From contig JAFYVA010000118.1 of the NCBI GenBank assembly GCA_017549325.1, positions 1 to 12,164 of the forward strand: DNA of 12,164 bases, read 5' to 3'. Shown piece by piece: positions 8,269-9,876 of the stretch; position 1 is the stretch's first letter, and each line of letters starts with the position of its first letter. Under the pieces are notes generated by a model. The model was not told where the DNA came from and did not search any database. It saw nothing but the letters and a program-made list of their open reading frames with translations. Source of the DNA: Oscillospiraceae bacterium (GTDB lineage: Bacteria; Bacillota_A; Clostridia; Oscillospirales; Oscillospiraceae). A program made the translations under genes and the position numbers.

Positions 8269-8303
8269 AAAAAGAAGAGAGCCTGCACGGCTCTCTTCTT
8301 TTT
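8269..8303 (+). terminator. Intrinsic terminator of malQ
   Basis: A perfect 15-bp stem, AAAAAGAAGAGAGCC (8269-8283) with GGCTCTCTTCTTTTT (8289-8303), loop TGCAC, continuing in T's. It starts 5 bases after the malQ stop codon. Confidence 0.95.
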
Positions 8304-8316
8304 TGTTTTTCATATG

Positions 8317-8366
8317 GCTATTAAGCAAAAAAGACGCCCGAAGGCGTCTTTTTTTCGCTTAATAGC
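8317..8366 (-). terminator. Terminator of the uracil permease gene, with extended stem
   Basis: The core is a perfect 12-bp stem (8327-8338 with 8343-8354). On the minus strand its loop is C(TTCG)G, the extra-stable tetraloop, and it is followed by TTTTTT. The stem continues outside a two-base slip as GCTATTAAGC / GCTTAATAGC (8317-8326 with 8357-8366), which includes the permease stop codon and the two bases of coding sequence before it and beyond. Its partner at 8269-8303 serves the convergent malQ. Confidence 0.92.
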
Positions 8367-9690
8367 TACCCAGGTCGGCAGCCTTGTCGCCCTCGGCGTT
8401 GGCACCGAACTCATAGTCGTTGCCGGGGAGGACGGCGTTGAACACCACGCCCAGGATGGCGGCGATGGCGAGGCCGGACAGGGTGATGGCAGCGCCGCCC
8501 ACGGTGAAGGTGATACCACCCACGGAGCTGAAGCCCAGACCGGAGACGAAGATGACGGCGGCGATGATCAGGTTGCGGGACTTGGTCAGGTCGACCTTAT
8601 TCTCCACGATGTTGCGCACACCGACAGCGGAGATCATACCGTAGAGGATGAAGCTGACACCGCCGACGATGGCAGCGGGGATGGAGTTGACCAGTGCGTC
8701 GAACTTGGGAGAGAAGCTGAGGATGATGGCGAAGTAGGCAGCCAGACGGACGACACGGGGATCGTACACCTTGCTCAGTGCCAGCACGCCGGTGTTCTCA
8801 CCGTAGGTGGTGTTGGCGGGGCCGCCGAAGAAGCCGGCAAGGGCGGTAGCCAGACCGTCGCCCAGCAGCGTGCGGTGCAGACCGGGATCGCCGATGAAGT
8901 TCTTACCGGTGGTGGAGGAGATGGCGGAGACGTCGCCGATGTGCTCCATCATGGCAGCGATGGCGATGGGAGCCATCACGAGGATGGCGGAGATGTCGAA
9001 CTTAGCGATGACGAACTGCTGCAGACCCACAAACTGAGCGCTGTTGACGGCGGTGAAGTCCACCTGACCGGCGATGAGGGCCACGATGTAGCTGACCACC
9101 ACACCCAGCAGGATGGGGATGATCTTGATCATGCCCTTACCCCAGATGTTGGCCACCACGACCACCACGATGGCCACAACAGCCAGCCACCAGCAGGTCA
9201 TGACGTTAGACACGGCGGAGCCGGCCAGGTTCAGACCGATGAGGATGATGATGGGACCGGTGACGATGGGGGGGAAGAAACGCATGACCTTCTTGGCGCC
9301 CACCAGCTTGAACAGCAGGGCCAGCACCAGATACAGGCCGCCGGCGACGACGATACCGCCCAGTGCGTAGGCCAGCTTCAGCTGGGGATCCATACCCTCA
9401 TAGGAAGGCAGGGTAGCCACGGTAGAGAAGCCGCCCAGATAGGCGAAGGAGGAGCCCAGGAACGCGGGCACCTTGAACTTGGTGCAGATGTGGAACAGGA
9501 TGGTGCCCAGACCGGCCATCAGCAGCGTCGTCTGGATGCTCAGGGGCAGGCCGTAACCCTGCACGAGGATGGGGACGAGAACGGTAGCGCCGAACATGGC
9601 GAACAGGTGCTGCAGACCCAGCACCAGCATGCGGGGCGTACCCAGCGTGCGTGCGTCGTAGATGGCCTCCTGGCCAAGACCTTTTTTCAT
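8359..9690 (-). CDS. uraA: Uracil permease, NCS2 (nucleobase/ascorbate) family
   Basis: A membrane transporter that imports uracil with protons, supplying pyrimidine salvage. The 443-residue protein is rich in hydrophobic segments, as expected for the 14-segment NCS2 fold. Motifs include LGLQHLFAMFGATVLVP at 24-40, VTGPIIILIGLNL, AMMEHIGDVSAIS around 246-258 and GGPANTTYGENTGVLALSKV at 289-308. Glu249 and Glu298 have the same 49-residue spacing as the uracil-binding Glu241 and Glu290 of E. coli UraA. The ATG at 9690 is chosen because AGAGGA lies 9 bases upstream; an in-frame ATG at 9720 has no ribosome binding site and overlaps the leader terminator's tail. The roughly 150-base leader holds a small reading frame and an attenuator-type terminator, so expression probably responds to pyrimidine supply. 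Confidence 0.96.
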   Translation of the reverse strand: MKKGLGQEAIYDARTLGTPRMLVLGLQHLFAMFGATVLVPILVQGYGLPLSIQTTLLMAGLGTILFHICTKFKVPAFLGSSFAYLGGFSTVATLPSYEGMDPQLKLAYALGGIVVAGGLYLVLALLFKLVGAKKVMRFFPPIVTGPIIILIGLNLAGSAVSNVMTCWWLAVVAIVVVVVANIWGKGMIKIIPILLGVVVSYIVALIAGQVDFTAVNSAQFVGLQQFVIAKFDISAILVMAPIAIAAMMEHIGDVSAISSTTGKNFIGDPGLHRTLLGDGLATALAGFFGGPANTTYGENTGVLALSKVYDPRVVRLAAYFAIILSFSPKFDALVNSIPAAIVGGVSFILYGMISAVGVRNIVENKVDLTKSRNLIIAAVIFVSGLGFSSVGGITFTVGGAAITLSGLAIAAILGVVFNAVLPGNDYEFGANAEGDKAADLGSY

Positions 9691-9720
9691 TTGCGATTTT
9701 CCTCTCTTTCTTTCAAACAT

Positions 9721-9749
9721 AAAAAAATGACCGATGAAATCATCGGTCA
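9721..9749 (-). terminator. Leader attenuator terminator of uracil permease
   Basis: On the minus strand TGACCGATGA (9749-9740) pairs perfectly with TCATCGGTCA (9737-9728), effectively a 9-bp stem with an ATTT loop, followed at once by seven T's (9727-9721). It lies between the promoter and the permease gene, so transcription must get past it. The first three bases of the stem are the stop codon of the leader reading frame. Confidence 0.9.
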
Positions 9750-9815
9750 GGGATTACAAACAGAAACACCAATAGAGGGAACGGCAGTGGCAGTGCAGGT
9801 GATCGTCAGCATCAT
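9747..9815 (-). CDS. Putative leader peptide of uracil permease (22 aa)
   Basis: A short frame, too small for standard gene calling, opens with two ATGs (9815 and 9812). GGGAGG (complement of 9824-9829) lies 8 bases before the first. It encodes 22 residues starting MMLTITCTATAV and ending VCNP, then TGA at 9749-9747. There is no run of one amino acid, so charged-tRNA sensing is unlikely. The second half is U-rich and the stop codon is the first triplet of the terminator stem, so a ribosome arriving there would prevent the hairpin. This matches the plan of E. coli pyrBI, where low UTP slows RNA polymerase in a U-rich leader and lets the ribosome catch up. Translation is inferred, not shown. 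Confidence 0.6.
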   Translation of the reverse strand: MMLTITCTATAVPSIGVSVCNP

Positions 9816-9831
9816 ATCCGTATCCTCCCTC
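9775..9831 (-). promoter_or_regulatory. Leader RNA fold that would cover the leader peptide's ribosome binding site
   Basis: On the minus strand GAGGGA (9831-9826) and ACGG (9821-9818) are complementary to the continuous stretch CCGTTCCCTC (9784-9775), giving 10 pairs with a 4-base bulge. The pairing hides most of the GGGAGG site of the small reading frame. It may be a second conformation that shuts off leader translation. Confidence 0.4.
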
Positions 9832-9847
9832 GTGATTTTTCTTGCCT

Positions 9848-9876
9848 ATTATACGAGTCAAATATTAAAAATTCAA
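9848..9876 (-). promoter_or_regulatory. Promoter of uracil permease
   Basis: On the minus strand TTGAAT (complement of 9871-9876), a 17-base spacer and a perfect TATAAT (complement of 9848-9853). The predicted start near 9841 gives a leader of about 150 bases before the permease ATG. Confidence 0.85.

What the first reader, a model, noticed from the sequence alone, without database searches (positions are those of the whole stretch)
9721..9853. Uracil permease leader has the architecture of pyrBI-like, translation-coupled attenuation
Between a consensus promoter and the permease gene lie a 22-codon frame with a strong ribosome binding site (GGGAGG, 8 bases from ATG), a U-rich stretch just before the frame's end, and a perfect terminator with a T7 tail. 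The frame's TGA is the first triplet of the terminator stem, so a ribosome at the stop would block the hairpin. In E. coli pyrBI, low UTP slows polymerase in the leader and lets the ribosome prevent termination. Firmicutes usually control pyrimidine genes through the RNA-binding protein PyrR, and I see no convincing PyrR-binding loop here. If real, this is a PyrR-independent, UTP-sensing leader in a Clostridium-type genome.
Basis: partly seen in the sequence, partly recalled or inferred. Interest (0 to 1): 0.72.

Follow-up and report, generated by a model that had tools for sequence, protein, structure and literature searches.

The report
Ribosome-gated terminator before uracil importer
Before a uracil-import gene in gut Oscillospirales bacteria lies a tiny frame that runs into a transcription stop signal, an arrangement like the classic E. 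coli pyrBI switch, plus an unexpected pairing between the frame's ribosome site and its U-rich stretch that may work as a timer.

Summary
On the minus strand lie a promoter, a strong Shine-Dalgarno (SD), a 22-codon frame, a U-rich tract and a perfect terminator whose first stem triplet is the frame's TGA, 37 nt before a uracil permease gene. The design recurs across Oscillospirales: in the uraA tree, 32 of 32 rows of the window's clade carry it and 1 of 50 rows of the Lachnospiraceae-type clade does (labels partly by eye). Peptides vary; SD, frame, U-tract and the stop/stem meeting stay. PyrR was found in 1 of 45 genomes I listed as leader-bearing and 13 of 35 others. No PyrR-binding RNA passed its cut-off; no trp-type antiterminator was seen. 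I read it as pyrBI-type attenuation: slow RNA polymerase (low UTP) lets a ribosome load, occlude the terminator and keep the SD unlocked. Termination, ribosome action and UTP response are inferred, not shown. New variant of a known kind.

The parts
9848..9876 (-). sigma-70-type promoter, TTGAAT-17-TATAAT
   Evidence: consensus scan, 10 of 12 matches; function inferred
9824..9829 (-). Shine-Dalgarno GGGAGG of the leader frame; 9828-9824 predicted to pair with 9778-9774
   Evidence: read; pairing predicted
9747..9815 (-). leader frame, 22 codons + TGA (second ATG at 9812-9810)
   Evidence: recurs as a frame, not as a peptide
9774..9784 (-). anti-SD segment: 9784-9781 with 9821-9818 and 9778-9774 with 9828-9824
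   Evidence: fold; class-wide SD/tract complementarity
9750..9780 (-). U-rich pyrimidine tract at the 3' end of the frame
   Evidence: class average 46-47% U in the last 30 nt before the stem
9728..9749 (-). terminator hairpin, 9 pairs, loop 4; its first triplet is the frame's TGA
9721..9727 (-). T7 tail, predicted 3' end of the attenuated transcript
   Evidence: termination not measured
9701..9706 (-). SD of uraA (GAGAGG)
   Evidence: read
8359..9690 (-). NCS2 uracil permease gene (uraA), the controlled gene
   Evidence: PF00860 1.3e-87; TIGR00801 over its cut-off; best single-function match is uracil permease PRK10720, below its cut-off

Best explanation
The leader is a ribosome-gated transcription attenuator of uraA that works like E. 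coli pyrBI. RNA polymerase makes the SD and the short frame, then the U-rich tract, then the terminator. If polymerase is slow (low UTP, many U to add), a ribosome loads and follows closely; at or near the stop codon it covers the 5' arm of the hairpin, the terminator cannot form and uraA is transcribed. If polymerase is fast, no ribosome is near, the hairpin forms and transcription ends. In addition the pyrimidine tract holds an anti-SD: once it is out of the polymerase it can pair with the SD, so a ribosome must load before the tract appears. That makes the leader an RNAP-speed timer with two exclusive states: SD locked and terminator formed, or frame translated and terminator open. Supported by comparison: recurring frame, stop/stem meeting, U-tract, SD/tract complementarity, near-exclusion with PyrR. 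Inferred: termination, ribosome occlusion, UTP as the signal, and the timing role of the lock.
For: Architecture in the window. Recurrence: 32 of 32 uraA rows of the window's supported clade labelled leader-bearing, 1 of 50 in the Lachnospiraceae-type clade, 14 of the other 32. 39 of 48 against 8 of 368 control terminators; frames with SD reach the stem in 45 of 45 against 115 of 175 and stop at it in 43 of 45 against 38 of 175. Ordinary genes of these loci keep a median 19 nt between stop and stem (n 83; 37% under 12 nt), leaders -2.5 nt (n 42); the leader set had been chosen with the stop no more than 15 nt before the stem, so this contrast is partly built in. In the last 12 codons U is raised at codon positions 1 and 3 (38 and 52% against 15 and 15% in uraA; position 2 is level, 43 against 42), so the wobble base, and not only the amino acids, drives the U-tract. 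Frame 0 alone has excess synonymous change. PyrR in 1 of 45 against 13 of 35 genomes, Fisher 5e-5, not corrected for kinship. SD/tract: own mean dG -15.5 against -13.3 for permuted partners, 0 of 20,000 as low; shuffle mean P 0.24; two control windows flat; uraA's own SD tends the other way. The minimum-energy fold keeps SD/tract pairs and terminator together in 64 of 69 (no shuffled control for this count).
Against: Nothing here measures termination, translation or UTP. Part of the U-tract is explained by pairing with a purine-rich SD. U is weak in many of the more distant leaders: 8 of 15 passing leaders of the order draw have under 40%, 14 of 69 representatives in all. The pyrimidine genes tested in the same genomes mostly lack the leader: 2 of 20 pyrB, 0 of 29 upp, 0 of 21 carA, so it is not a general pyrimidine regulon; many pyrB lie inside operons, and a scan of 12 pyr contigs added nothing beyond G022. 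Leader and PyrR co-occur in G019 and G541, and 22 of the 35 leaderless genomes have no PyrR hit either. A review reports that transcription outruns translation in Bacillus subtilis (PMC7858274, passages); if that held in Oscillospirales, tight coupling would be doubtful.
Confidence: 0.73

Rival explanations
1. Coupled attenuator that senses translation capacity or ribosome supply rather than UTP: the frame is read and the terminator gated, but the signal is the rate of ribosome loading (SD lock), not polymerase speed.
For: SD/tract pairing makes loading the gate; no call tests UTP; some leaders are poor in U.
Against: The gene is a uracil permease; U exceeds C two to one in the last 30 nt (47 against 24%) although an anti-SD alone would favour C; the leader stands largely where PyrR is missing.
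Confidence: 0.14
2. PyrR or another RNA-binding protein controls the terminator.
For: Normal mode in Firmicutes (recalled); pyrR lies directly before uraA in 12 family genomes that lack the leader.
Against: PyrR protein over its cut-off in 1 of 37 genomes (34 of 37 have matches at E 0.001 or better, nearly all under the cut-off, which I take for other phosphoribosyltransferases) and PyrR RNA over its cut-off in 0 of 37, with one weak match in G019; no Rfam match in the leaders; apart from SD, tract and hairpin the leader sequence is not conserved by eye.
Confidence: 0.03
3. Trp-type attenuation by stalling at codons of one amino acid.
For: A leader frame before a terminator; Phe, Ser and Leu are the commonest residues of the last 12 codons.
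Against: No shared codon run (the window has no Phe); leader/terminator-arm complementarity is not above shuffles (mean P 0.46, 42 leaders), so no antiterminator is seen; U is raised at the wobble position.
Confidence: 0.03
4. A small protein gene with its own terminator, unrelated to uraA.
For: Own promoter, SD and terminator; mild excess of synonymous change.
Against: The peptide is not conserved; 23-114 nt, median 49, separate stem and uraA start in 77 leaders, 37 nt in the window, where the scan saw no promoter (relatives not scanned); only 8 of 368 other terminators have such a frame.
Confidence: 0.03
5. A metabolite riboswitch with the terminator as expression platform.
For: Terminator in the leader of a transporter gene.
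Against: In 20 related loci the only Rfam matches at gathering score are two lysine riboswitches downstream of uraA and two tRNAs; about 12 nt from the likely transcript start (inferred) to the SD leave no room for an aptamer outside the frame.
Confidence: 0.02

Closest known systems
E. coli pyrBI (pyrL) attenuator
   Same: SD GGGAGG, short frame, U-rich tract and an intrinsic terminator reached by the frame, before a pyrimidine gene. Folds also predict SD/tract pairing in the pyrBI leaders of two E. coli, Klebsiella and Proteus (pair probability 0.99-1.00; shuffle P 0.30-0.52, so none significant). In the Klebsiella record the frame ends inside the stem, as in many leaders here.
   Different: Controls a permease, in Bacillota; peptides unalike by eye. 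The frame usually ends at or inside the stem, while that of E. coli runs through it. SD/tract complementarity is statistically supported here and is not mentioned for pyrBI in the passages I read.
E. coli pyrE attenuator (rph-pyrE)
   Same: Translation ends close to the terminator and U-rich RNA precedes it (recalled, no call).
   Different: There the frame is a full gene, rph (recalled); here it is a leader of 17-38 codons.
PyrR attenuation of Bacillus-type pyr genes
   Same: Terminator before the uracil permease gene, pyrimidine control (recalled).
   Different: No PyrR-binding RNA over cut-off and PyrR in few leader genomes.
SD-sequestering translational attenuators (erm type)
   Same: An SD is held in a hairpin until an event frees it (recalled).
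   Different: Here the leader's own SD is predicted to be held by the tract before the terminator, and the output is transcription, not translation.

Membership tests
pyrBI-type (translation-coupled, UTP-sensing) attenuator | short leader frame with SD between promoter and gene | tested here: met
pyrBI-type (translation-coupled, UTP-sensing) attenuator | intrinsic terminator that the frame reaches or enters | tested here: met
   window: TGA is the first stem triplet; 45 of 45 leaders with SD against 115 of 175 controls reach the stem
pyrBI-type (translation-coupled, UTP-sensing) attenuator | U-rich tract in the leader just before the terminator | tested here: met
   46-47% U in the last 30 nt against 22% background; 55 of 69 leaders at 40% or more; in the order draw only 7 of 15
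pyrBI-type (translation-coupled, UTP-sensing) attenuator | no antiterminator structure needed | tested here: met
   complementarity to the 5' arm not above shuffles
pyrBI-type (translation-coupled, UTP-sensing) attenuator | control of a pyrimidine gene | tested here: met
   uraA; PF00860, TIGR00801; substrate uracil inferred from family
pyrBI-type (translation-coupled, UTP-sensing) attenuator | readthrough rises at low UTP and needs leader translation | not testable with these tools
   needs transcription and translation assays
pyrBI-type (translation-coupled, UTP-sensing) attenuator | the frame is translated | tested here: inconclusive
   excess synonymous change in frame 0 only, 7 pairs, P 0.01; no ribosome data
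PyrR-controlled attenuator | PyrR-binding RNA loop in the leader | tested here: not met
   RF00515 over cut-off in 0 of 37 genomes, one weak match; none listed in the window
PyrR-controlled attenuator | PyrR protein in the genome | tested here: inconclusive
   over cut-off in 1 of 37 and 1 of 45 leader-bearing genomes; one PyrR model used, genomes may be incomplete, and the window's own genome is not held
trp-type amino-acid attenuator | run of codons for one amino acid and an antiterminator | tested here: not met
riboswitch | aptamer of a known class | tested here: not met
   no Rfam match in the leader of the window or of 20 loci; unknown classes cannot be tested

The most novel reading that the evidence does not exclude
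The U-rich tract is at once the clock and the lock: it slows polymerase when UTP is short and, once made, seals the leader's own SD. A ribosome that has loaded in time keeps both SD helix and terminator open; otherwise both close. This would be an RNAP-speed-gated ribosome-loading switch, used in mostly PyrR-less Oscillospirales, and possibly an overlooked part of the classic enterobacterial pyrBI attenuator as well.
Probability: 0.37. Interest if true: 0.84.

Novelty: new variant of a known kind. Interest (0 to 1): 0.72.

Why it matters
Transcription-translation coupling in Bacillota is disputed: a review reports runaway transcription in B. subtilis and short stop-to-terminator distances as its mark (PMC7858274, passages). 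A widespread attenuator that can only work if ribosomes keep up with polymerase would argue that coupling is real, at least locally, in a major gut order. It also offers a PyrR-free route of pyrimidine control, a case of one gene with two alternative regulators within one family of bacteria, and a testable idea, SD locking by the sensor tract, that may apply to E. coli pyrBI.

Tried and rejected
Rfam on the window and 20 loci: nothing relevant. Leader frames with terminator before upp (29 loci) and carA (21): none, though a few hairpins without frame; before pyrB (20) G020 and G022, a weak row in G012 that I discounted, and terminators without frame in G015 and G024. Scan of 12 pyr-operon contigs: three rows, of which only G022 is convincing. 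Trp-type antiterminator: rejected. Literature: ten searches; among the papers listed (lists capped at 2 to 20 of up to 1,765) none by title or start of abstract describes a uracil-permease leader-frame attenuator in Bacillota. Only open-licence PMC papers are covered. I read passages, not whole papers, of PMC2965389, PMC7858274, PMC4824070 and PMC5021804; Johnson 2020 was not held and is known here through PMC7858274.

Weak points of my own counts. Tree labels: leader rows kept by eye, plus L012, L014, L075, L080 and L150 called by eye because the hairpin finder had mis-chosen or missed their stems; 14 further rows with implausible frame/hairpin combinations (L025, L030, L044, L051, L059, L062, L066, L067, L077, L079, L151, L152, L164, L175) were counted as lacking the leader; L067, L174 and L175 are not in the tree. 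The fixed criteria pass 0 of the 48 loci outside my Oscillospirales-like group (9 of them have a terminator before uraA). From I used 36 of 40 rows (4 repeat loci), 74 of 87 rows (11 repeats, one without upstream sequence, one second copy). Before the 77-leader set I dropped 5 of the 40 rows by eye (L232, L252, L258, L262, L270). L238 and L244 look like through-running frames but are not in that set. Of the 45 'leader-bearing' genomes, G387 and G524 rest on dropped rows and G544, G539 and G317 on reading by eye; without G387 and G524 it is 1 of 43 against 13 of 37. Stop positions of the 77 are limited by the search window (no more than 15 nt before the stem). The SD/tract tests treat 69 representatives as independent although they share ancestry; the count of 64 of 69 with pairing probability 0.5 or more has no shuffled control. 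The script failed after its main results; the identities and gap list are not usable, because identity was counted over aligned columns only, and were replaced by the ungapped pairs. Of six gammaproteobacterial leaders, Aeromonas (start uncertain) and Photobacterium (no SD frame found at the expected place) gave no clear answer.

Full report
What is there. On the minus strand, 5' to 3': promoter TTGAAT-17-TATAAT (9876-9848), SD GGGAGG (9829-9824), ATG 9815, a 22-codon frame ending with TGA 9749-9747, a U-rich stretch before that stop, a 9-pair hairpin 9749-9728 whose first triplet is the TGA, T7 to 9721, then uraA from 9690 behind its own SD. The gene is an NCS2 nucleobase permease, nearest by single-function model to uracil permease though under that model's cut-off. 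The window's genome is not held, so relatives were used.

Conservation. One scan of genome contigs gave the 80 best uraA loci of a capped list. Their upstream regions showed the same order of parts in Oscillospiraceae-type loci. An even draw of 295 genomes of the order gave 39 with uraA and one of 250 genomes of a family gave 86; upstream regions were fetched and read. With fixed criteria, 24 of 33 Oscillospirales-like loci including the window, 15 of 36 new loci of the order draw and 0 of 48 other loci pass; 8 of 368 other terminators in the same loci pass. In the family draw 40 of 74 new loci gave a leader row by looser criteria, of which I kept 35. In the uraA tree the window sits in a clade (support 98) of 32 rows, all labelled leader-bearing; in the Lachnospiraceae-type clade 1 of 50 is, and 14 of the other 32 rows are. 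The labels rest partly on my eye, as told under Tried and rejected.

What is conserved. Not the peptide: compare MMLTITCTATAVPSIGVSVCNP with MMFSAVSESRMVVPSIIIF or MLYSMHSACMAAGSFSPFSFV. What stays is the strong SD, a frame of 17-38 codons, a tract with 46-47% U (background 22%), and a frame that reaches the stem. In the last 12 codons U is raised at codon positions 1 and 3 and level at position 2 against uraA. U is strong in the window's own kin (22 of 24 passing leaders at 40% or more) and weaker in the order draw (7 of 15). Ordinary genes in these loci leave a median 19 nt between stop and stem (83 genes; 37% under 12 nt). In 7 close ungapped pairs, 17 of 37 single-change codons are synonymous in frame 0 (27% expected, P 0.01), against 7 of 34 and 8 of 34 in the other frames, which favours translation.

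Who else could regulate uraA. PyrR-binding RNA: 0 of 37 genomes over cut-off, one weak match in G019. PyrR protein over cut-off: 1 of 37, again G019; the matches in the other genomes are weak and I take them for other phosphoribosyltransferases. In 80 family genomes PyrR occurs in 14: 1 of the 45 I had listed as leader-bearing and 13 of 35 others, 22 of which thus have neither; in 12 of the 14 it lies directly before uraA. Leader and PyrR look like alternatives at the same gene, with two co-occurrences (G019, G541). The same kind of leader stands before pyrB in 2 of 20 genomes and before 0 of 29 upp and 0 of 21 carA genes, so the system seems mainly a permease switch.

A second layer. The leader upstream of the terminator folds more stably than shuffles (mean z -2.0, 42 leaders), with no excess complementarity to the terminator arm. 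The pairing lies between the SD and the pyrimidine tract. In 69 non-redundant leaders the SD region pairs with its own tract better than with dinucleotide-shuffled tracts (mean P 0.24, z -7.4) and better than with other leaders' tracts (0 of 20,000 permutations, z -7.2), while codons 2-7 and the region -45 to -26 show nothing and the stretch just before the tract (-50 to -25) next to nothing (mean P 0.44). uraA's own SD shows the reverse tendency (mean P 0.62; 61 genes). In 64 of 69 an SD base pairs with the tract at probability 0.5 or more; the partner spans about -24 to -14 before the stem (medians), and SD helix and terminator coexist in 64 of 69 folds (these two counts have no shuffled control). 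In the window 9828-9824 pairs with 9778-9774 and 9821-9818 with 9784-9781.

How it most likely works. Published work in E. coli reports that a ribosome close to a stop codon represses a terminator a few nt downstream and that pyrBI depends on coupling of translation to transcription across its leader (PMC4824070, PMC5021804; passages). The same parts are here. Low UTP slows polymerase on the U-rich tract; a ribosome loads, translates the short frame and covers the hairpin's 5' arm; uraA is made. With ample UTP polymerase finishes the tract first; the tract seals the SD, no ribosome comes, the hairpin forms. The SD lock would sharpen the decision and spare the cell from translating the terminated RNA. 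Sequence comparison supports the parts; the kinetics, the UTP signal and the lock's role are inference.

Relation to known systems. By anatomy this meets the testable defining features of pyrBI-type attenuation and fails those of PyrR-RNA, trp-type and known-riboswitch control. The functional features were not testable, so 'works like pyrBI' is the claim; descent from it is not claimed. The pyrBI leaders of two E. coli, Klebsiella and Proteus are predicted to pair SD and tract too (probability 0.99-1.00), but none is significant against shuffles (P 0.30-0.52), and Aeromonas and Photobacterium gave no clear answer. Ten searches of open PMC papers, with capped lists, listed no description of such a uraA leader in Bacillota.

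Noticed in passing
L265, L272, L274, L278, L280, L287, L288, L292, L293, L296, L298, L300: In these leaderless family members uraA lies directly downstream of a pyrR-like gene; the genome search places PyrR there in all 12 genomes.
   Followed up: yes
L088 (G020) and L107 (G022), upstream of pyrB: pyrB preceded by the same kind of leader frame and terminator.
   Followed up: partly
L301-L304 (E. coli, Klebsiella, Proteus pyrBI leaders): Predicted pairing between the leader SD and the U-rich tract, not significant singly.
   Followed up: partly
L283 and L291: uraA preceded by a terminator-like hairpin without a recognised leader frame; a different attenuator may act there.
   Followed up: no
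L008 and L070: MAG contigs titled Spirochaetales carry uraA and leader that fall in the window's Oscillospiraceae-type clade: mis-binning or transfer.
   Followed up: no
L005:4524-4693 and L007:4479-4654: Lysine riboswitch just downstream of uraA.
   Followed up: no
window 8269-8303 and about 8330-8352: Two hairpins with T-runs between the convergent malQ-like gene and uraA; the first is listed by the scan, the second only seen in the sequence and in weak Rfam alignments.
   Followed up: no
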